DNA from: Oscillospiraceae bacterium
GTDB taxonomy: Bacteria > Bacillota > Clostridia > UMGS1840
Assembly: GCA_015068645.1 (NCBI GenBank)
Contig: SVKD01000013.1
Coordinates: forward strand, 1-64,000
Direction of reading: 5' to 3'
Length of the DNA stretch: 64,000 nt
In this document: positions 54,035 through 64,000 of the stretch, piece after piece
How positions within the stretch are numbered: position 1 is the first letter of the stretch
How the letters are laid out: each line of letters starts with the position of its first letter
Translations under genes and position numbers: made by a program
Notes under the pieces: generated by a model
Database searches by the model: none
The model's input: the letters and a program-made list of their open reading frames with translations, nothing else
Told to the model about the DNA's origin: nothing

Positions 54035-55075
54035 ATGCCACTGCAAATTATCAGACAAGATATTACCAAAATGAAGGTTGACGCCATTGTAAACACCACC
54101 AACACGGAAATGATTGGATACAGTGGCGTTGATTATGCTGTCCATCAAGGAGCAGGGAAGGAACTGGACATCGAATGTGCCAGAATTGCTCCTCTCGGCC
54201 TTGGAATGGCGAAAATCACCAAGGGATACAACTTAGATGCCAAATATATTATCCACACGTCTGGGCCCATCTGGGAAGGTGGATTGCTTGGGGAAAGTAT
54301 CATCTTAAAATCCTGTTATCTGGAATCCTTGAAACTGGCGGTTCAGAATGGATGCACTTCCGTTGCATTTCCGTTGATTTCGTCAGGTGTTTACGGTTAT
54401 CCCAAAGATCAGGTTTTAAAATTTGCAGTACAAGTTATCACCGAATTTTTGTTTGAACACGAGTTGATGGTGTACCTGTGTGTGTATGACAAAACTTCCT
54501 ACGAATTCAGCCGACAACTCTTCACGGAAATCCGTGATTTTATTGATGACGATTACGCAGAAGACCACCACGGCGATTGTCTGGAAGAACTTGATACGTT
54601 TGAAGACTTCAGAGGAGCTTTCCGTCCCAAGAAAACTATAGAATATGCTTGTATGGAAGCAACACCGATGATGTCTGCACCTCCGATGACTAGTGCCACA
54701 GATAAGTCGTTGGATGAGTATATGAAGGAAATGGATAAATCCTTCGCCTTCAAACTCTTTGACTTGATTGACGAGCGTGGTATGACCGATGTGGAGTGTT
54801 ACAAGAAAGCCAATGTGGATAAGAAAACATTTTCCAAAATCAAATGTCATCCCGATACATACCGTCCGTCCAAACAGACCGCCGTTGCCTTTGCAATCGC
54901 ACTAAAATTGAATCTGGACGAAACCCAGGATTTGCTGTCTTCTGCAGGACTTACCTTATCCCGAAGCTTCACATTTGATAAAATTATTCGCTATTTTATC
55001 CAAAAAGAAATTTACGATATTTTCGAAATCAACGAAGCACTGTTTGAGTTTGATCAAGTGCTTTTGGGGGTATAG
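54035..55075 (+). CDS. Macro domain protein with C-terminal helical domain
   Basis: The first 165 residues are a macro domain, which binds ADP-ribose and often removes it from proteins or hydrolyses O-acetyl-ADP-ribose. Motifs: DAIVNTTNTEMIGYSGVDYAVHQGAG (about 16-41) and PLISSGVYGYPKDQ (about 114-127). After an acidic linker (about 170-230) the C-terminus (about 235-346) is helical and HTH-like (DVECYKKANVDKKTFSKIKCH, TAVAFAIALKLNLDETQDLL), suggesting DNA binding. AGGTGA precedes the ATG. The GIY-YIG gene follows after one base. Confidence 0.88.
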   Translation: MPLQIIRQDITKMKVDAIVNTTNTEMIGYSGVDYAVHQGAGKELDIECARIAPLGLGMAKITKGYNLDAKYIIHTSGPIWEGGLLGESIILKSCYLESLKLAVQNGCTSVAFPLISSGVYGYPKDQVLKFAVQVITEFLFEHELMVYLCVYDKTSYEFSRQLFTEIRDFIDDDYAEDHHGDCLEELDTFEDFRGAFRPKKTIEYACMEATPMMSAPPMTSATDKSLDEYMKEMDKSFAFKLFDLIDERGMTDVECYKKANVDKKTFSKIKCHPDTYRPSKQTAVAFAIALKLNLDETQDLLSSAGLTLSRSFTFDKIIRYFIQKEIYDIFEINEALFEFDQVLLGV

Positions 55076-55076
55076 A

Positions 55077-55484
55077 ATGAATAGAATTAATGAGATACCA
55101 AAAATTTATGAATTGATGGTAAAGTCCAAAAAACATTATTTTAATGAATTGAAACCATCACATCTTGAAGAGAATTTATCCGTAGTATATGCGATAACAA
55201 ATTTTAAAACAAATCAAGTTTTATATGTAGGGAAAACAACAAGATTACGCCGGCGTTTATACACCAATCATTTGATGGGACCTCTTGTAAATGCACGATT
55301 GAAGAAATATTTAATAGATGATCCGGAAATTGAGCATGTAGTTGATTTAGTCACGGCAAAACAATTTTTGAAAGATAACTGTTATTTTCAATATGTGGTT
55401 GAAACCGACATGAGAAAACGCGGACAGCTTGAAGGATTGTTTAGTTTTTTGTTAGATGTTAGATATGTAGACAAAGAACATTAA
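55077..55484 (+). CDS. GIY-YIG nuclease-like protein
   Basis: A 135-residue protein. VVYAITNFKTNQVLYVGKTTRLRRRL (about 43-68) is the GIY-YIG core (here Y-A-I and L-Y-V-G), with the conserved Arg in RRRL and a Glu in QLEGLFSFLL near residue 122. Such domains cut or nick DNA. The start is ATG 55077, with GGGGG six bases upstream and one base after the macro gene stop. The two genes therefore seem coupled. Confidence 0.75.
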   Translation: MNRINEIPKIYELMVKSKKHYFNELKPSHLEENLSVVYAITNFKTNQVLYVGKTTRLRRRLYTNHLMGPLVNARLKKYLIDDPEIEHVVDLVTAKQFLKDNCYFQYVVETDMRKRGQLEGLFSFLLDVRYVDKEH

Positions 55485-55524
55485 AAGTCTCTCACCAAGC
55501 GACCAATTGAACAGTAAAACAATG

Positions 55525-55573
55525 TATAATGTGATTGTAAGGTAACAAAACCCGACAATCACATTATTTTTTT
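55525..55573 (+). terminator. Terminator hairpin with an embedded -10 box upstream of the VWA gene
   Basis: ATAATGTGATTG (55526-55537) pairs perfectly with CAATCACATTAT (55556-55567), and TTTTTTT runs straight into the GGAGG of the VWA gene. TATAAT (55525-55530) overlaps the first arm. Read-through from the upstream genes would terminate, while a transcript starting in the loop would escape. Confidence 0.65.
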
Positions 55574-55586
55574 GGAGGTATTTACA

Positions 55587-56249
55587 ATGGAAAAAATGAA
55601 AAACGGTATTACTGAATTGGTATTTATTTTAGACAGAAGCGGTTCTATGGCAGGGTTAGAGAGTGACACCATCGGCGGATTCAATGCCATGATTGAAAAA
55701 CAGAAAAAAGAGAACGGCGAATGTTATGTATCTACCGTACTGTTTGATAATGTATCTGAAGTGTTGCACGACCGCGTGAAGCTTGACCACATCAAACCGA
55801 TGACCGATCGAGAATACACCGTCCGTGGATGCACAGCACTTATTGATGCTTTAGGCGGTGCTATCCGTCATATCGGTAACATCCATAAGTATGCTAGACC
55901 CGAAGACATTCCTGAACACACCATGTTTATTATCACAACCGACGGGATGGAAAACGCCAGCCACCGTTATAACAGTGACCAGGTGAAAGCGATGATTGAA
56001 CGCCAGAAAGAGCAGTATGGCTGGGAATTTCTGTTTATTGGCGCCAACATTGATGCGGTGGAAACTGCAAGACGCTACGGCATTGACGAAGACAGAGCAG
56101 TAAATTACCACGCTGATCCCAAAGGAACTGCTTGTCTGTACGAAAGTGTATCCAATGTGGTGTGCAGTGTCAGAATGGGTTGTGATATCGAGGATAACTG
56201 GAGTGATAAACTGAAAAAAGACTACCAAAGCAGAGGCAAGAAAAGATAA
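55587..56249 (+). CDS. VWA domain protein (TerY-like)
   Basis: A 220-residue von Willebrand factor A domain. The MIDAS motif DRSGSM (about residues 14-19), the Thr in GCTALIDALG (about 84) and the TTDGMENAS loop (about 113) are complete, so it should bind a divalent metal and a partner protein. It resembles TerY of stress and defence clusters. ATG 55587 is preferred to TTG 55572, because GGAGG is eight bases upstream of the ATG and would lie inside the longer frame. Partners could be the macro protein or the operon downstream. Confidence 0.85.
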   Translation: MEKMKNGITELVFILDRSGSMAGLESDTIGGFNAMIEKQKKENGECYVSTVLFDNVSEVLHDRVKLDHIKPMTDREYTVRGCTALIDALGGAIRHIGNIHKYARPEDIPEHTMFIITTDGMENASHRYNSDQVKAMIERQKEQYGWEFLFIGANIDAVETARRYGIDEDRAVNYHADPKGTACLYESVSNVVCSVRMGCDIEDNWSDKLKKDYQSRGKKR

Positions 56250-56461: not shown

Positions 56462-56490
56462 TTGACAACTCGAGTGGACTATTATATAAT
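56462..56490 (+). promoter_or_regulatory. Perfect consensus promoter of the GHKL-ATPase operon
   Basis: TTGACA-N17-TATAAT with both hexamers perfect, 31 bases upstream of the first ATG. No operator palindrome is evident beside it, so expression may be constitutive. Confidence 0.88.
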
Positions 56491-56521
56491 ATAGTAGAAA
56501 TTTAATCATGGAGGTATAACT

Positions 56522-56746
56522 ATGTCGGAAACCAAGAGAGAAAAGTTTATTAGGATAGCGGAAGCTCGTACTAATAAAATAATTGATATGGTGAAATTAC
56601 TTGGTAACTGTTCAAATAAGGCAGTATACGACTACACGAAAGAAGATGTGAAAATAATTTTTGCAGCAATTGAAGACGAATTGAAGATTTCAAAAGCAAA
56701 ATTTGATACGACAGACTCTGAAAATAAAAAATTTAAATTAAGGTAG
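56522..56746 (+). CDS. Small helical protein, first gene of the ATPase operon
   Basis: A 74-residue, highly charged helical protein without a known function: REKFIRIAEARTNKIIDMVKLLGNCSNKAVYDYTKEDVKIIFAAIE. Similar short proteins occur in accessory regions of Firmicutes, in my recollection. GGAGG lies seven bases before the ATG. The ATPase gene starts ten bases after its stop. It may be a regulator or an adaptor of the system. Confidence 0.75.
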   Translation: MSETKREKFIRIAEARTNKIIDMVKLLGNCSNKAVYDYTKEDVKIIFAAIEDELKISKAKFDTTDSENKKFKLR

Positions 56747-56756
56747 GTGTGAAGAA

Positions 56757-58631
56757 GTGGCAGATTGGTATTTCCCTTCAAATGACCATGGTGAAAACAA
56801 AGGAATTAATGATTCAGGCGTTGCCACTTTTAGAGGTACGCCTTTGAAGTCGTTGGCACGCGAAATTTGTCAAAACTCCCTCGATGCAGCAACTGGGAAA
56901 ACTGTTCGTGTTGATTTCTCAAATTATGAAATTCCTACAAGTAATGTACCTGGCGCAGATGTATTGAAAGAAACATTCGAAAAGTGCCTAGCTTATTGGA
57001 ATGGACAAAGAGCCAAAACAACTAAGGATTTCTTCAAAAATGCGTTTGAAAAAATAAGTGCTGAAAAAATAAGTGTATTAAGAATTAGTGATTTTAAAAC
57101 AAAGGGTCTTACAGGCTCTAAAAGAACAACAGACATAAATACTGACTGGATGAGATTGACTAAATCTTCTGGATCATCTGATAAAAAAGGCCCGGCTGGT
57201 GGTTCGTTTGGTATAGGTAAATTTGCACCGTTTGCCTGTTCGGATTTTTCGACAGTGTTTTATAATACATATGATATAGAAGATGAGTGCGCATATCAGG
57301 GTGTATCCAGGTTGGTTACGTTTGAACGTGACGACGGCGAAACCACACAGGGTATTGGTTATTACGGTAATGAACGAAATACACCAGTGTTTGAATCTTT
57401 GAATTTAGATCCTGATTTTATAAGAGATCCTGGTGACTATGGAACAGATGTGTATGTTTTGGGTTACCGCTTTTCTCAAGAAGATTGGGAAACAGCGATT
57501 GTTGTTTCGATTTTAGATAGTTTTCTCGGAGCAATTTGGAATGAAAAACTTACTGTCAACGTGGGTGATGTAAAAATTGACAAATCTACGTTATCAGAAC
57601 TTATGGAAGAATATGCCGAAGAACTGACTAACACATATGTTATGGAATATTATCAGGTATTAACCAGCCCTGAAACAAAATGGTTTGAGAACAATCATTT
57701 AGGATTAGGAATCGTAAAACTTGGCTATTTACTTAACGGTAATGATTTTCATCGAAAAGTGGCGATGATTCGCCAAACCGGTATGAAAATCAAAGACGGA
57801 GATCGTATCAATGGGTTCATTTCATTTGCAGGGGTTTTGTTTATCGAAGGAGATACGATAAATGAGAAACTTCGTGCTCTTGAAAACCCCGAACACACAG
57901 AATGGCAGCCCGACCGCGCGGCAAATCCTTTTGAAGCAAAACAACTGATTAAATCAATTAACGATTACATGAAGAAATGTTTAGAGGAACTTGTGGAACA
58001 AGGATCCCAGAACGCAATAGATGCTGTTGGCGTTGGCAACTTTATACCTGATACTCCTGATGATGAAAAAAATCAAAATCGTGAGGAGGCCATTTCTGAT
58101 ACGGTATTGGAAATAGAGAAGCGTGTTATTGAACGAAAATATGTTCCTGATGTTGTTTCTGTGGAAAACGGTGATGATGAATCCGAGAAGAAAGTAGATC
58201 CTGTAGATGGAGAATCGGACGAGGATTGGGTACACGAAAAAGATGGCGACCATGTGGATCCACCCAGACCTCCACAACCGGTAGATTATGTTGATGGTAC
58301 TGAAAAAACTATCAGCCCTCCTAAAGAAATTAAACCATCTAGATTTATGTATATCTGCAATAATCCAGATGAGGGTAGATATATGATAGATTTTATCCCT
58401 TCCGATGATTCGGATAAGGGAAAATTAAGTTTTTTCCTTTCTGGCGAAACCGAGGCATATAAAGCGGAGCTGGTTAGTGCTTCACAAATCGGAGGTTCAG
58501 AATTAAAAATACAAGATAATTCCTTGATCAACTTACATTTTGAAAAGGGGCAGCACATCAGAATAAATCTACAATTGGCTCATAAAGATTATTGTTCAAT
58601 GGAGGTGAAGGCATATGTTAATAAGAAATAA
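56757..58631 (+). CDS. GHKL (Hsp90/MutL-type) ATPase of an uncharacterised system
   Basis: A 624-residue protein. The Bergerat fold is at the N-terminus: N-box EICQNSLDA (Glu36, Asn40, Asp43), a G1-like RISDFKTKGLTG (about 109-120), and a G2 loop KKGPAGGSFGIGKFAPF (about 143-159). A transducer-like region follows (about 170-420), then a Pro/Asp-rich linker (about 470-520) and a C-terminal beta region (about 530-624). GTG 56757 starts it. GHKL ATPases of the MutL/MORC branch have been linked to restriction-modification islands. Its stop overlaps the next gene by 17 bases. Confidence 0.8.
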   Translation: MADWYFPSNDHGENKGINDSGVATFRGTPLKSLAREICQNSLDAATGKTVRVDFSNYEIPTSNVPGADVLKETFEKCLAYWNGQRAKTTKDFFKNAFEKISAEKISVLRISDFKTKGLTGSKRTTDINTDWMRLTKSSGSSDKKGPAGGSFGIGKFAPFACSDFSTVFYNTYDIEDECAYQGVSRLVTFERDDGETTQGIGYYGNERNTPVFESLNLDPDFIRDPGDYGTDVYVLGYRFSQEDWETAIVVSILDSFLGAIWNEKLTVNVGDVKIDKSTLSELMEEYAEELTNTYVMEYYQVLTSPETKWFENNHLGLGIVKLGYLLNGNDFHRKVAMIRQTGMKIKDGDRINGFISFAGVLFIEGDTINEKLRALENPEHTEWQPDRAANPFEAKQLIKSINDYMKKCLEELVEQGSQNAIDAVGVGNFIPDTPDDEKNQNREEAISDTVLEIEKRVIERKYVPDVVSVENGDDESEKKVDPVDGESDEDWVHEKDGDHVDPPRPPQPVDYVDGTEKTISPPKEIKPSRFMYICNNPDEGRYMIDFIPSDDSDKGKLSFFLSGETEAYKAELVSASQIGGSELKIQDNSLINLHFEKGQHIRINLQLAHKDYCSMEVKAYVNKK

Positions 58632-59487
58632 ATATTTTCCATATCCTGTGATAGCTAAAGGAAATGATTCTTATGCTACTGCTACTTTTACCAGTGATGT
58701 TGACTTTGAGAAAAATGGTTATCATATAAAATTTATACTTAAAGCCTCTTCTAATAATGACGGTATCAATGAGTTAATTGCCTCCAAAAAAGTATCTTTT
58801 GTGCATCATATCGAATGCGTTAAAACTTGTTATAGACACGCGGTAGTTACTCAAGAGGAGGAAGAAGTATTTCAAATTCATCAAAGCAAACTTAATGGTG
58901 CTGTACAAATAAGTACTGTTATTGTTGCAAAGGAAGATTTGAAAGGCTATAAAAATTCAGATTTCTCTGCTGATTATAGAGGCTTTGCGTTCAACATTAA
59001 AAAAGGTTGCCTTCTCGCAATAGGTGAGTGTATTGAAATTGAACTTAATAAACAGAAGGATGATTTAGAAAACACTTCATCAATCTTCTCGATTGTTCCA
59101 AACCTTGATCCTAACGAAACAATTATAAATGTGGATATTAGTAGTACTAAACCAAAGATTGTTATTCGTATCCCTGTTAAAGGTTGTAACATCTATAAAA
59201 ATCTGAGTACGAATCTTGAATTGCAAAGTATTATGCATTCAATGATTATTGTCCCTGCGTTAGTACAGGTTTTTGATGAATTAAAGGCATCGCGTTATGA
59301 ACTGTATAACTATAGTGATTGCAGATGGTTTAAAGCACTTATAAAAGCTTGTAAAAACTTGAAAATAGATCTCACAGAGCAAAGTTTAGAAAACTTTGAT
59401 TCTTACAAGACAGCGCAGTTACTGATGGATTCACCCACAATGAGAGCTCTGACGTATTTGGCAGGAGGTTCTGAAGATGAGGATTAA
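58615..59487 (+). CDS. Unknown beta-rich protein of the ATPase operon
   Basis: I do not recognise this 290-residue protein. The first two thirds are strands and turns (for example KNGYHIKFILKASSN, AVQISTVIVAKED, PKIVIRIPVKGC); the last third is helical (LQSIMHSMIIVPALVQVFDEL and following). There is no signal peptide or membrane segment. It overlaps the ATPase gene by 17 bases and the next gene by 11, which implies coupled synthesis and probably a stoichiometric complex. GGAGGTG lies before the ATG. Confidence 0.75.
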   Translation: MLIRNKYFPYPVIAKGNDSYATATFTSDVDFEKNGYHIKFILKASSNNDGINELIASKKVSFVHHIECVKTCYRHAVVTQEEEEVFQIHQSKLNGAVQISTVIVAKEDLKGYKNSDFSADYRGFAFNIKKGCLLAIGECIEIELNKQKDDLENTSSIFSIVPNLDPNETIINVDISSTKPKIVIRIPVKGCNIYKNLSTNLELQSIMHSMIIVPALVQVFDELKASRYELYNYSDCRWFKALIKACKNLKIDLTEQSLENFDSYKTAQLLMDSPTMRALTYLAGGSEDED

Positions 59488-60202
59488 ATTTATTACCGAA
59501 GAAGGTTTGTTGGCTGCAAAAAGTAACTATCCTACAATTTTCAAAGAAGTAATTAAAAAGAATGCTACGGATCTTCCTACTCTTATGAATGACAACAGTA
59601 TTATACGGGATAGCTTTATAGAAATTGAGGATTTTTCTTTTGATATGTCACAAGACAGGCCAACTGCGACAGATGTCGAAAATATTAGGCGTGTTTACAA
59701 TCACATGAAAGGTCTTAGCGAATCTCAAGCATCTGATGAAAGAATATGGGTGGCGTTCACACTTTATCAAGGGCTAGATTACATGAGATATCGTTGGATG
59801 CCTGATGATGAAGGAGATAAATTTGACCGTTTTTTCTTTAAGAATTCGAAGCACGGTTATAGCAAAAGACCTTTGTTTAGAAACGGAGTTGCTCGATTGT
59901 GGTGGATAGGTTATCATACCTATGATGCGAAAAGAACAAATCCTTATGAATTGACAGAATTTGTTTGTAGGGATCAGGATTATATAAATAATCTTTTAGA
60001 TATTGGTTTTGCGAGTAACGCTACAATTTCAAAGGCAGTCCTAGGTGCCTTGTTGGATGCAGAAAAGAATGGTGTGACAATCAATCGTGAGTTAGTTCGT
60101 TCTATCTCCCAGTATGTAAACTTACTTGGCGGAATTTATATTCTTGATTGCTTGTCTTATGAAGAGATTTATAGTAAAATTAAGGAAAGGATTGGCTTCT
60201 AA
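59477..60202 (+). CDS. DUF6339-like protein of the ATPase operon
   Basis: A 241-residue protein that resembles, from memory, proteins annotated as DUF6339; function unknown. Characteristic stretches are RIWVAFTLYQGLDYMRYRW (about 92-110), SKRPLFRNGVARLWWIGYHTYD (about 135-156) and a helical C-terminus. It is soluble, without a nuclease motif that I can see. AGGAGG precedes the ATG inside the end of the upstream gene. Being fixed between the beta-rich protein and the sigma-like protein suggests a core role in the system. Confidence 0.7.
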   Translation: MRIKFITEEGLLAAKSNYPTIFKEVIKKNATDLPTLMNDNSIIRDSFIEIEDFSFDMSQDRPTATDVENIRRVYNHMKGLSESQASDERIWVAFTLYQGLDYMRYRWMPDDEGDKFDRFFFKNSKHGYSKRPLFRNGVARLWWIGYHTYDAKRTNPYELTEFVCRDQDYINNLLDIGFASNATISKAVLGALLDAEKNGVTINRELVRSISQYVNLLGGIYILDCLSYEEIYSKIKERIGF

Positions 60203-60224
60203 TAAATTTTCGGAGGGTTAATGA

Positions 60225-63200
60225 ATGAAATGTTTTAATTGTGGATCTGATATAGTTGATACCGAGCTTAGTGTGTGCACTAACTGCTCGGCGCTGATTA
60301 ATGCAAAAAAAGCAAAATTTATTTCATATATTGGCCCTTCTGATAGTTTGGCTGGCTATCAGAAATCATATAAATTATTGCTTTTAAAGTATGTTATTGA
60401 AGCAATATTGGATGAAAATGAAGCTACAGTTGCTAGAGTAATCCCAGCCATTAAAGAATACTATATTGATAGAAAAAACAGGGGATTACAACCGGATTAT
60501 GATGTTGATACACGTATTTCTGAAATTGAGAATTCATCTGATTATGATGTTTTTGCGGTTATCAAAAGTCAGCCATTTAAGGTTATAAATGAAAAAGGCT
60601 ATTTGTTTTTAAATCACAATTCAAACGATAAGCTTGTATTTGTATTTAATGAGGATATTTCTGATGCTATGTCACACGACGAATGGCACAAACTTCTGAA
60701 TATTATAAATGTAAAGATTGACCTTTACTATAGTCGTTATGATAATCTCAACAATGTTTCTACAGCAACTGAGGAACCTTCTCGAGAACAAGTCAAAGAA
60801 TTCTCCAAAGAGGAAAACAATGATAATTTGAATCTTTCATTGTCGGTGTTAGAAATAACCAATCTTAGTGTAAGGGCAAAAAATATTTTGATGCGCAATA
60901 AGCTTTACACTATTGGCGCTGTTATGAATTTTGTTCAAGACAATGACTTGCGTTCTTTAAAAAATATGGGACAAAAGACATTTGAAGAAATTATGGAACT
61001 GTTGGAATCTTCCAATTATCAGGTTTCTACAAGTGTGCCAACCGATAGCATTGCTTCACTTTTTTCAGGCAATACATATCATATGTTCGTCGAGTTTTGT
61101 GAACAAAATTGCCTGTCTACATTATCTGATCTTGAAGATTTTGATTTTTCCTTGTTGCTTAACGAGCCGCGTTTTGGTGTAGGAAAGCTGAATTTGATAA
61201 AAGAAAAGTACTACAGTTTATTACAAGAAATAAGCTTTTCTACTCAAAACACAGAACACAGAGAGTTAGCGGTAGAACCATCTCCGGCAATAACCATTGA
61301 CCCAAGTAATCTTGATTTGGGCATTCCGTATTTGCGATTTGCTGGCATATCCGCAAGAAACAATGCAAAATTCTATGAAAATGGGTATTCAAAAATTGGC
61401 GACATACAAGACATCACTTTGGAAAAGTTAATGCAGATGTTCGGTAGAGCCAAAGGGATTGGAATTCTGGATAAAATAAAGATTTTTGAAAAGCCTTTAC
61501 TGACAATTGCTACCGAGAGATTAAATGAACATAAAGGTAATCGCGAATTTGATATATATGTCGATAGAGCAAACAAAAAAACATTGCAAGAGATAGCGGA
61601 TAATTACGGTTTGACAAGGGAACGAATTAGGCAAATTGAAGCGAAATTTTTCAGAGAATTTTCCCCGTTGTTTGGTTCGCTTGTTGAGCAACATATGACG
61701 CAGAATAATCTTTCTTACATTACAACTCAAGAGGTTTTAGAGTTTTTTGATGACGATGATTTTGACACAGTTATTATGTATACGCTAAAAGAGTCATTTT
61801 CGTTAGAATATTTATCGTTTGCTGATATGTTTATTAAGAAACAAAGCGAGATGCAAAATACAGATGTAAAGCTACGAAAATTAACAAATGAATTCATAGG
61901 GGATGAAGGAATCAATTTTTTTGAGAGTTTATCACAAATAGAAGAAATGCTTAACAACGCAGAATTAGGTTTTATATCAGCTGATGCTTTTTTGAATTAC
62001 TTAATCGAGAGCGGTGCGTATTTTTATGGCGATTTTGTATTTCTAAGAAAGCAGACATATGCAAAATTATGCTTGATATTGATCTCAAAATACTTTAAAG
62101 ATGGTATCACGTTATATTCGGATGATGATATTAACAAACTGCGTAGATTGTTCCACGAAGAATATGGTGAATACGATTTGCCAGAGCAGAATCGTGCTAT
62201 CAGCGCAAGGATATCTGAGTTCTTAATTGTGTGCGATCGTGGAAAAGCAAAACTTATTGAGCATATTAAATTCGAACAATCTGTTATTGATGATATAAAA
62301 AAATATATCGATACAAGTTCTTTAAAAACCTTATATTTTGCTGAGATTTTTAACGAATTCGAAGGTGTTTTGGCATTTACTTCGGATATTACAAATTATC
62401 ATGGTTTGCATGGGTTATTGGCATATTTATATCGGGATGAATACGAGTTCACAAGGGATTGTATCACGAAGATAAATGGAGAGGGCAAATCACTTAGCCT
62501 TTCGGAACGTATTGTTTTATTTATTTTAGAAAAAGGTTGTGCCGTTACACGAAATGAAATAAAACAAAAAATAGGTGGATTATCTGACATTATGCTATTT
62601 AATGCTATTAGCAGTTCGAAGGAATTGCTACAGTGGGATTATAATAGTTTTAATGCTCGGGGTAATTTGAAAATTTTTGACGAAGATATTAGTGTGATTT
62701 CAGAAGTTCTTGAAGAAATATTTTCTCAATTTAAAGGATATTGTAGCGATAAATTGATATTTGAAAAATTAAAATTACAGCTTCCAGAATTGCTATCTCG
62801 AAATGCAATAGAAAACCCAACAAATCTATTTTATGTGTTGCAAAATCTTCTTAGCGATAAATATCAGTTTAGTCGTCCTCATATTTGCCAAAAAGGCACT
62901 GTTGATTCTCTAACGACAAAAAGCATTGCTCTTTATTTGCTTGGAACAACGCAACAAATAAGTAGAAGTGAGTTTATGCAAATAGCCAAAGATGTATGTT
63001 GGTCGGAAACAACGGCAGATTTAATTTTCTACGAGCTGGAAAAAGATTATACTAGAATTTCAGAGGACATCTATATTTTGTCTGGTGATTTTAATATTGA
63101 GGAAGATACATTAAATCAAGTTTCTGATTGGTTTCAGAAAAGCATTTCAAACCAAGGATTCTTATCGATGATAGGTTTTGATAATTTTGAAAATTTACCA

Positions 63201-63515
63201 GAAATACAGTATGAATGGAATTCCTTCTTACTTATTTCTATAATTAAAAAACATAATTTGGGCTTAAGATTAGTTTCGCCAGCAATCAGAGATAGGAGAT
63301 ATAACAAAGAAGTCATTGTTTCTAAGGATTCACCTTATTACCATTTGGATGATATTGTTTATGATATGCTTGTAAAGAACGGTATTAATTTTATAGATGA
63401 ATCGAATCTTCTTTCGTTCTTGGTTATTAATCATCTTGTTTCTAAAGTTATTCCCAAAGAATTATTTGATTCTAAAATTTTAAATTATGCGGATGGATAC
63501 TTTAAAATAGCATAA
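60225..63515 (+). CDS. Large protein with zinc ribbon, alpha-CTD-like and sigma region-4-like domains
   Basis: The 1096-residue chain begins with a zinc ribbon (CFNCGSD...CTNCSA, residues 3-21). At about 205-262, LEITNLSVRAKNILMRNKLYTIGAVM ... LRSLKNMGQKTFEEIMELL matches the helix-hairpin-helix of the RNA polymerase alpha C-terminal domain. Two weaker HhH-like blocks follow (about 285-335, 365-420). At about 447-475, TLQEIADNYGLTRERIRQIEAK is the sigma-70 region 4 helix-turn-helix. The rest contains winged-helix-like segments (such as LSERIVLFILEKGCAVTRNEIK, about 760). Known alpha-CTD and sigma 4 contact promoter DNA. ATG 60225 follows GGAGGG; the ATG at 60221 is out of frame. Confidence 0.8.
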   Translation: MKCFNCGSDIVDTELSVCTNCSALINAKKAKFISYIGPSDSLAGYQKSYKLLLLKYVIEAILDENEATVARVIPAIKEYYIDRKNRGLQPDYDVDTRISEIENSSDYDVFAVIKSQPFKVINEKGYLFLNHNSNDKLVFVFNEDISDAMSHDEWHKLLNIINVKIDLYYSRYDNLNNVSTATEEPSREQVKEFSKEENNDNLNLSLSVLEITNLSVRAKNILMRNKLYTIGAVMNFVQDNDLRSLKNMGQKTFEEIMELLESSNYQVSTSVPTDSIASLFSGNTYHMFVEFCEQNCLSTLSDLEDFDFSLLLNEPRFGVGKLNLIKEKYYSLLQEISFSTQNTEHRELAVEPSPAITIDPSNLDLGIPYLRFAGISARNNAKFYENGYSKIGDIQDITLEKLMQMFGRAKGIGILDKIKIFEKPLLTIATERLNEHKGNREFDIYVDRANKKTLQEIADNYGLTRERIRQIEAKFFREFSPLFGSLVEQHMTQNNLSYITTQEVLEFFDDDDFDTVIMYTLKESFSLEYLSFADMFIKKQSEMQNTDVKLRKLTNEFIGDEGINFFESLSQIEEMLNNAELGFISADAFLNYLIESGAYFYGDFVFLRKQTYAKLCLILISKYFKDGITLYSDDDINKLRRLFHEEYGEYDLPEQNRAISARISEFLIVCDRGKAKLIEHIKFEQSVIDDIKKYIDTSSLKTLYFAEIFNEFEGVLAFTSDITNYHGLHGLLAYLYRDEYEFTRDCITKINGEGKSLSLSERIVLFILEKGCAVTRNEIKQKIGGLSDIMLFNAISSSKELLQWDYNSFNARGNLKIFDEDISVISEVLEEIFSQFKGYCSDKLIFEKLKLQLPELLSRNAIENPTNLFYVLQNLLSDKYQFSRPHICQKGTVDSLTTKSIALYLLGTTQQISRSEFMQIAKDVCWSETTADLIFYELEKDYTRISEDIYILSGDFNIEEDTLNQVSDWFQKSISNQGFLSMIGFDNFENLPEIQYEWNSFLLISIIKKHNLGLRLVSPAIRDRRYNKEVIVSKDSPYYHLDDIVYDMLVKNGINFIDESNLLSFLVINHLVSKVIPKELFDSKILNYADGYFKIA

Positions 63516-63550
63516 CAAAAGGAGTGGTCGAGCGGCCACTCCTTTTGTTA
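63513..63550. terminator. Bidirectional terminator at the end of the ATPase operon
   Basis: TAACAAAAGGAGTGG / CCACTCCTTTTGTTA, a perfect 15-bp stem that includes the stop codon of the large gene. It serves both converging genes. Confidence 0.85.
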
Positions 63551-63553
63551 TTG

Positions 63554-64000
63554 TTATTCCATTTCTGAACGAACAACAGAGAAATCCATTAAAAAGTGTT
63601 CGTCATCAAGTTTTGTAAAGGTTACATCTGAACGACCATATTCTTTAAAGTGTTCCTTAGTTACCTTTACACCTTCGTGAATCCCAAGACGATTTCTAAA
63701 ATATCTTCCTATTTCAGCGTTGTCGCTAGGTGTAGTGATAGCTTTGTTTCCGGCTTGTTCTACTCTCATGATGAAGCACTCGCCATCATCTGCAACGACA
63801 GTAAAATAACGTTTGTTTAAAGGAAAAAATCCTGTTTTTGAAATCTTAGAAGGTAACGGTATATATGCCTGATTTGGGTCGCGGTGTTCTCTTTGACCCC
63901 AGTTTAAACTTGAAGTTGTTGGAACCTCTCCAGTGTTAGATAGAAATGATAGAGTTTGTTTCTCTTCAGAATTGAAATCCACCATAGTTGCTTCATAACT
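63554..64000 (-). CDS. Restriction endonuclease C-terminal (B3-like) part, 5' end outside window
   Basis: The frame is open to the right edge (149 codons), so the ATG at 63985 is probably internal. The sequence SSLNWGQREHRDPNQAYIPLP, FFPLNKRYFTVVADDGE, NAEIGRYFRNRLGI and DVTFTKLDDEHFLMDFS fits, from memory, the DNA-recognition domain of NgoFVII/BfiI-type endonucleases with a PLD catalytic domain, which would lie beyond the edge. It converges on the ATPase operon, sharing the terminator. A restriction role supports calling this a defence island. Confidence 0.65.
   Translation of the reverse strand, partial: SYEATMVDFNSEEKQTLSFLSNTGEVPTTSSLNWGQREHRDPNQAYIPLPSKISKTGFFPLNKRYFTVVADDGECFIMRVEQAGNKAITTPSDNAEIGRYFRNRLGIHEGVKVTKEHFKEYGRSDVTFTKLDDEHFLMDFSVVRSEME

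What the first reader, a model, noticed from the sequence alone, without database searches (positions are those of the whole stretch)
56462..63550. Uncharacterised five-gene operon: GHKL ATPase, two unknown proteins and a sigma/alpha-CTD-like giant
Seen: a perfect consensus promoter, five genes with overlaps or short gaps, and one strong terminator. The genes encode a 74-residue helical protein, a 624-residue Bergerat-fold ATPase with clear N-box and G2 loop, a 290-residue beta-rich protein, a DUF6339-like protein, and a 1096-residue protein with DNA-binding modules of transcription proteins. Known: MutL/MORC-like GHKL ATPases occur in restriction-linked islands. Inferred: this is one multi-protein machine, probably defence, in which the ATPase clamps DNA or RNA polymerase complexes. 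I know no named system with this set.
Basis: partly seen in the sequence, partly recalled or inferred. Interest (0 to 1): 0.87.

Follow-up and report, generated by a model that had tools for sequence, protein, structure and literature searches.

The report
R-M-linked GHKL ATPase operon, PDC-M33 variant
The five genes are a real operon: a variant of a catalogued but untested bacterial defence candidate (PDC-M33) that travels with DNA-methylating restriction systems, extended by a large protein carrying promoter-recognition modules whose relatives also sit in BREX and Pbe defence operons.

Summary
Five intact ORFs lie between a 12/12 consensus promoter and an 18-bp-stem terminator. The claim that no named system fits is only partly right. 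Genes 2-4 are PDC-M33A, B and C of PADLOC (716, 304 and 261 bits), and gene 4 is DUF6339. The ATPase carries every GHKL motif plus the ExxxH signature of paraMORC2, described by Iyer et al. in 2008.

Four findings are added here. (1) A-B-C is contiguous in 32 loci, including Bacillota, Deinococcota and Actinomycetota. (2) It lies beside a C5-cytosine methyltransferase in 9 of 18 genomes (0.16 expected), with endonucleases of unrelated families. That points to an accessory of m5C restriction-modification, not the nuclease. Here the partner is a one-chain methyltransferase-NgoFVII fusion, mostly outside the window. (3) The giant is not a sigma factor. It is an accessory of one M33 clade, plus one split copy elsewhere. 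Relatives precede BrxP-BrxC-PglZ and PbeA-PbeC. (4) The 74-aa protein precedes GHKL ATPases of at least four unrelated families.

The mechanism is inferred: an ATP-gated DNA clamp, with the giant as a promoter-type DNA-binding subunit. Defence activity has not been tested. I class it as a new variant of a known kind.

The parts
56462..56490 (+). Consensus sigma-A promoter, TTGACA-17 bp-TATAAT
   Evidence: 12/12; similar 11-12/12 promoters precede the orthologous small gene in relatives
56522..56746 (+). 74-aa helical protein: leader gene of GHKL-ATPase operons
   Evidence: upstream of A in 23 of about 33 M33 loci and upstream of other GHKL families
56757..58631 (+). GHKL ATPase, PDC-M33A / paraMORC2-type (E36, N40, D112, G149-x-x-G152-x-G154, E376xxxH380)
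   Evidence: 716 bits to PDC-M33A; invariant columns; paraMORC2 definition
58615..59487 (+). PDC-M33B: N-terminal beta-sandwich, C-terminal helical part
   Evidence: 304 bits; AlphaFold (pLDDT 78, pTM 0.51); Foldseek
59477..60202 (+). PDC-M33C / DUF6339: mostly helical, no fold match in PDB
   Evidence: AlphaFold (pLDDT 82); Foldseek (best E 0.53)
60225..63515 (+). 1096-aa giant: zinc ribbon (C3, C6, C18, C21), N-module shared with PDC-M26A-type AAA proteins (23-180), alpha-CTD-like HhH (197-261), sigma-70 region-4-like HTH (446-480, TRERIRQIEAK at 464-474), long C-terminal region shared with BREX- and Pbe-linked relatives
63512..63551 (+). Bidirectional intrinsic terminator between the operon and the convergent R-M gene
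63554..64000 (-). 3' end of a 680-aa C5-methyltransferase (4-332) fused to an NgoFVII-type PLD endonuclease (364-521) with a B3 domain (543-663). The gene continues outside the window to contig base 65596; an XRE gene overlaps its 5' end at 65586-65963
   Evidence: conserved beside the operon in L009, L010, L011

Best explanation
The operon is the accessory ATPase module of an m5C type II restriction-modification system: PDC-M33 core genes A-B-C, led by a small GHKL-partner protein and extended in this clade by a sigma4/alpha-CTD-type DNA-binding giant. Shown here: conserved synteny, linkage to C5-methyltransferases with unrelated endonuclease families, intact ATPase motifs, an intact -35-type recognition helix in the giant, and no nuclease fold found in B or C. 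Inferred: the paraMORC2 dimer closes on DNA when it binds ATP, as MutL and MORC do. B and C are its adaptors, and the 74-aa protein controls or loads the ATPase. The giant holds the complex on promoter-like DNA (-35 helix plus UP-element-type HhH). On unmethylated incoming DNA the clamp loops or traps the DNA, so that the methyltransferase-NgoFVII enzyme cuts more efficiently or transcription of the invader is blocked. Of these steps, accessory to R-M is the best supported (about 0.75), ATP-gated DNA clamp is plausible (about 0.5), and promoter targeting by the giant is weakest (about 0.3).
For: A-B-C contiguous in 32 loci, including Bacillota, Deinococcota and Actinomycetota. C5-methyltransferase within about 10 kb in 9 of 18 M33 genomes against 0.16 expected (Poisson P about 2e-13), and usually the genome's only one. 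The partner endonucleases belong to unrelated families: NgoFVII PLD, EcoRII-C, HpaII, MutH/Sau3AI and AlwI (record annotation). So A-B-C cannot be matched to one recognition site and is unlikely to be the endonuclease. Invariant GHKL residues and ExxxH. TRERxRQ recognition helix kept in 9 of 10 giant-family members. Giant relatives directly upstream of BrxP-BrxC-PglZ and of PbeA-PbeC, both modification-linked systems. Giant fused or split, and at three different positions, in M33 operons.
Against: Half of the M33 genomes have no C5-methyltransferase within 10 kb, and six have none at all. The two giant-bearing loci L091 and L093 have none nearby. The giant is missing from most M33 loci, so it is not required for the core function. 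No defence phenotype is on record. The fold searches of B and C gave no confident match, so a novel nuclease in B or C is not excluded. The alpha-CTD-like domain and zinc ribbon are not conserved across the giant family.
Confidence: 0.5

Rival explanations
1. The giant is only the operon's transcription regulator: it binds the consensus -35/-10 promoter (sigma4-like helix plus alpha-CTD-like HhH) and keeps a strong defence operon silent until infection. A-B-C does the defending.
For: The recognition helix matches the sigma region 4.2 pattern and the operon has a perfect -35 hexamer. Regulators commonly sit in immune operons (CapK/CapS).
Against: Equally strong promoters (11-12/12) precede the small gene in loci without a giant (L099, L100, L090). 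At 1096 aa it is far larger than known immune-operon regulators, and its long C-terminal part is conserved across BREX- and Pbe-linked relatives. It lies last in the operon here.
Confidence: 0.2
2. A-B-C(-giant) is a back-up abortive effector: it guards the R-M system or senses its products (DNA ends) and stops growth when a phage defeats restriction.
For: Works with R-M systems of any specificity. Some M33 operons carry AIPR, which PMC9523054 calls an abortive infection protein (L020 by annotation; L036). The same logic is proposed for R-M/CapKS/CBASS loci.
Against: No toxin or nuclease domain was found in A, B, C or the giant.
Confidence: 0.2
3. A variant of the validated MZA system (MutL-like ATPase, Z1, AIPR, sigma-like MzaA), with the giant in the role of MzaA.
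For: The giant hits MzaA over the sigma4 segment. Some M33-like loci carry Z1 (L028, L036, L096) and MzaE (L036, E 4e-79). PMC9523054 describes Z1/C5-methyltransferase/MORC systems resembling MZA.
Against: The window has no MzaC, MzaD or MzaE. M33A has no hit to MzaB at E up to 1, and the MzaA match is only 31 residues.
Confidence: 0.15
4. A DNA-repair or self-protection module for m5C R-M (like MutL with Vsr), which limits damage from host self-restriction or m5C deamination rather than fighting phages.
For: Vsr genes occur beside several M33 loci (L016, L017, L034, L094, L098, L103, L105). MutL-type ATPases act with Vsr and MutH.
Against: Vsr is absent here. Several M33 genomes have no C5-methyltransferase at all. 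PADLOC lists M33 as a defence candidate.
Confidence: 0.1

Closest known systems
PDC-M33 (PADLOC phage defence candidate, models PDLC04582-04587)
   Same: A, B and C match over their whole length, in the same order
   Different: The PADLOC candidate has three genes. This locus adds the 74-aa leader, the giant and the R-M fusion. No functional test of PDC-M33 was found (0 papers).
paraMORC2 family of restriction-linked GHKL ATPases (Iyer et al. 2008, PMC2292703)
   Same: All GHKL motifs, S5-type ExxxH motif, Gram-positive host, R-M neighbourhood
   Different: Direct alignment to their sequences could not be made. B, C, the giant and the small protein are not named in the text read.
MZA system (Gao et al. 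2020; NCBIfam/PADLOC MzaA-E)
   Same: GHKL ATPase plus a sigma4-bearing protein; intermediate loci carry Z1 and AIPR
   Different: MzaC, D and E are absent here; MzaA is similar only in the HTH
Z1 / PD-(D/E)XK / C5-methyltransferase putative system (Miller et al. 2022, PMC9523054)
   Same: C5-methyltransferase, MORC-type protein, occasional MzaA-like sigma protein
   Different: Z1 and the PD-(D/E)XK protein form its core and are absent from the window
PglW of BREX type 2
   Same: alpha-CTD-like domain in a large multidomain defence protein (PMC12839542)
   Different: No kinase domain was found in the giant; sigma4 HTH and C-terminal part differ

Membership tests
PDC-M33 | Whole-length matches to models A, B and C | tested here: met
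   716.4, 303.7 and 261.1 bits
PDC-M33 | A-B-C contiguous in one operon | tested here: met
PDC-M33 | Anti-phage activity | not testable with these tools
   no published test found
paraMORC2 | GHKL N-box, DxxT/G1 and G2 motifs | tested here: met
   E36, D112, G117, G149, G152, G154 invariant; N40 at least 90%
paraMORC2 | ExxxH motif C-terminal to the ATPase core | tested here: met
   E376 and H380 invariant in 19 sequences; definition
paraMORC2 | Genomic context of restriction-modification | tested here: met
paraMORC2 | Groups with the published members in a tree | not tested
   published sequences not at hand
MZA | MzaC (Z1), MzaD (PD-D/ExK) and MzaE (AIPR) present | tested here: not met
   none in the window operon or its flanks examined
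MZA | ATPase homologous to MzaB | tested here: not met
   no MzaB hit for M33A at E up to 1; the search covers sequence only
Sigma-70 factor (for the giant) | Regions 2 and 4 both present | tested here: not met
   region 4 only
Type II R-M system (flanking gene) | Cognate C5-methyltransferase and endonuclease | tested here: met
   DNA_methylase, RE_NgoFVII and RE_NgoFVII_C in one chain

The most novel reading that the evidence does not exclude
The giant founds a family of promoter-addressing subunits shared by three modification-based defence systems (m5C-linked M33, phosphorothioate BREX, phosphorothioate-linked Pbe). It uses a sigma region-4 helix, and in this clade also an alpha-CTD-type domain, to bring a GHKL clamp or other defence machinery to promoters on incoming DNA. 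That would be transcription-start-directed immunity.
Probability: 0.18. Interest if true: 0.85.

Novelty: new variant of a known kind. Interest (0 to 1): 0.58.

Why it matters
It gives an untested defence candidate (PDC-M33) a context: it is an accessory of m5C restriction-modification that works with endonucleases of unrelated families. That makes the long-standing proposal that prokaryotic MORC-like ATPases assist restriction directly testable. It also links M33, BREX and Pbe through a shared protein with RNA-polymerase-type promoter-recognition modules, and identifies a 74-aa protein that precedes several unrelated GHKL ATPases. Both would be general components rather than system-specific ones.

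Tried and rejected
(1) A wholly unknown system: rejected, A-B-C is PDC-M33. (2) The giant as a sigma factor: rejected, only region 4 is present. (3) A-B-C as the endonuclease: not supported, since unrelated endonucleases accompany it and B and C have no nuclease fold match; a novel fold is not excluded. (4) The palindrome ACTCGAGT in the promoter spacer as an operator: not conserved in relatives. (5) Solved-structure searches for A, B, C and the small protein: nothing useful; the giant only matches sigma region 4. (6) Giant homologues on plasmids: none. (7) Literature on PDC-M33 or DUF6339: none held. (8) Self-comparison of the giant profile found an internal similarity (276-1044 against 186-899, E about 2e-14) that I did not resolve into domains. 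(9) The small protein as M33-specific: rejected.
Full report
OBSERVATION. The promoter is an exact TTGACA-17-TATAAT at 56462-56490 and the terminator is an 18-pair stem at 63512-63551. In relatives the same small gene is preceded by promoters of 11 or 12 of 12 with a 17-bp spacer (L009, L010, L011, L035, L090, L099, L100), and the aligned hexamers are nearly invariant. The promoter is therefore not a chance match.

IDENTITY OF THE CORE. Pfam sees only DUF6339 (gene 4) and alpha-CTD/sigma-region-4 pieces (gene 5). PADLOC recognises genes 2-4 as PDC-M33A, B and C at 716, 304 and 261 bits. In 19 diverse relatives of the ATPase the invariant residues are E36, D112, T115, G117, G149, G152, G154, R339, M343, E376 and H380 (among others), with N40 at 90% or more. 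E376xxxH380 fits the ExxxH motif that Iyer et al. 2008 (PMC2292703) give as the mark of paraMORC2, a family of GHKL ATPases of restriction operons found mainly in cyanobacteria and Gram-positives. The ATPase is therefore best called paraMORC2-type. Direct alignment with their sequences was not possible.

CO-OCCURRENCE. M33A was found in 9 of 398 genomes of the phylum and 11 of 391 of the class, on plasmids (26 records) and in viral-contig collections. A, B and C are recognised as contiguous and in the same order in 32 loci; a halophilic archaeal plasmid has A and C recognised, with an unmatched ORF at the B position (L019). The 74-aa gene stands ahead of A in 23 of these loci. The whole five-gene set in the same order, followed by the convergent methyltransferase-NgoFVII gene, recurs in three other Clostridia MAGs. 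The same five genes, followed by a C5-methyltransferase, recur in G583 (L089).

RESTRICTION LINK. The gene cut by the window's edge is a 680-aa fusion of a C5-methyltransferase and an NgoFVII-type PLD endonuclease with a B3 DNA-binding domain, with an XRE gene overlapping its 5' end. In 18 M33 genomes a C5-methyltransferase lies within about 10 kb of A in 9, and in most of these it is the only one in the genome. The expectation from genome sizes and methyltransferase counts is 0.16 (Poisson P about 2e-13). Two of the nine (G034, G699) have divergent ATPases. The accompanying endonucleases differ: NgoFVII (L003, L009-L011, L030, L089), EcoRII-C (L018, L034), HpaII (L094) and MutH/Sau3AI (L012) by profile, AlwI (L013, L017) by record annotation. 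Vsr genes also occur. A module that stays the same while the endonuclease changes is more likely an accessory than the nuclease.

STRUCTURES. AlphaFold of B (10 sequences; pLDDT 78, pTM 0.51) gives a beta-sandwich N-terminal half and a helical C-terminal half. Its best Foldseek matches are Ig/FN3-type sandwich domains of large enzymes and receptors, at E 0.0025 or worse: fold level only. AlphaFold of C (pLDDT 82) is mostly helical with no PDB match (best E 0.53). No nuclease was recognised in A, B or C. The alignments were shallow and a new fold is possible.

THE GIANT. It carries a zinc ribbon (C3, C6, C18, C21), an N-module (23-180) shared with the N-termini of MrcB/AAA proteins of PDC-M26 type, an alpha-CTD-like domain (197-261), a sigma region-4-like HTH and a long C-terminal region. 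It has no sigma region 2, so it is not a sigma factor. The recognition helix TRERxRQ is kept in 9 of 10 family members; zinc ribbon and alpha-CTD are not. From general knowledge of sigma-70, R584, E585 and Q589 of this helix read the -35 hexamer; that the giant does so is inference. In M33 loci the giant is last (window, L009-L011, L089), between the small gene and A (L093), before the small gene (L091), or split into a 181-aa alpha-CTD protein and a 546-aa sigma4 protein between the small gene and A (L035). On the ATPase tree these loci form one clade with one probable loss, plus L035 separately (three changes, no shuffle of 500 as low; quick method with some long branches). Outside M33, relatives sit directly upstream of BrxP-BrxC-PglZ (L067; L068 with one gene between) and of PbeA-PbeC (L069, L070, the latter by position and sequence resemblance), and one truncated copy has no defence context (L071). 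The 2026 BREX survey's section on type 4 (PMC12839542) does not mention such a protein; its figures and supplements were not seen.

THE SMALL PROTEIN. It is not M33-specific. On plasmids and in genomes it directly precedes GHKL ATPases of other families: a 621-aa one that lies ahead of GajA-GajB (L144, and by annotation L145, with a homologue in L146), an 800-aa one (L143), and a family of 804-840 aa (L090, L110, L155). Their N-box and G-loop motifs were read directly. A paralogue lies just outside the window at contig 66144-66377, before an HNH gene. Homologues also occur in phage genomes without a GHKL neighbour.

RELATION TO MZA. Some M33-like loci carry a Z1 helicase (L028, L036, L096), and L036 also MzaE. 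M33 and MZA therefore grade into each other, as Miller et al. 2022 (PMC9523054) saw for a related Z1/C5-methyltransferase system. The window operon itself lacks MzaC, D and E, and its ATPase has no MzaB hit.

MECHANISM. Shown: conserved operon, intact ATPase motifs, statistical linkage to m5C R-M with interchangeable endonucleases, and a conserved promoter-type recognition helix in the giant. Inferred: an ATP-closed DNA clamp (as for MutL/MORC) that assists restriction or silences incoming DNA, regulated by the small protein, with the giant as DNA-binding adaptor. A GHKL ATPase with a nuclease domain, VcSduA (paraMORC3-type), is validated against phages and dies with an ATPase-site mutation (PMC12137116). 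That makes a defence role credible but does not prove it here.

Noticed in passing
contig C13:66144-66377 (L003:10144-10377), just outside the window: Second copy of the 74-aa gene (77 aa, 62% identical) with its own 12/12 consensus promoter, directly before an HNH endonuclease gene (L003:10405-11193)
   Followed up: partly
L143, L144, L145, L146, L090, L110, L155: The small ~75-aa protein leads operons whose next gene is a GHKL ATPase of at least four unrelated families, once ahead of Gabija GajA-GajB (profile-confirmed in L144)
   Followed up: yes
L111-L139 (IMG/VR), Synechococcus phages (L158, L159): Phage genomes carry homologues of the small protein without a GHKL neighbour; they might act as decoys against such systems (speculation)
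   Followed up: no
window 63554-64000 and on to contig 65596: One-chain C5-methyltransferase-NgoFVII PLD endonuclease-B3 fusion; in L030 the same two enzymes are separate genes
   Followed up: partly
L067, L068, L069, L070: Relatives of the giant stand directly upstream of BrxP-BrxC-PglZ and of PbeA-PbeC; I found no description of such a subunit in the text I read
   Followed up: partly
L072, L073, L074: The giant's N-module (residues 23-180) is also the N-terminus of MrcB/AAA proteins of PDC-M26A type, in L072 next to Olokun OloA-OloB
   Followed up: no
L035:9173-11079: The M33A ATPase reads as two adjacent ORFs (258 + 372 aa): a natural split or a frameshift
   Followed up: no
window 54035-56249: Upstream genes on the same strand: macro-domain protein with extra C-terminal part, GIY-YIG protein, VWA-like protein
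   Followed up: no
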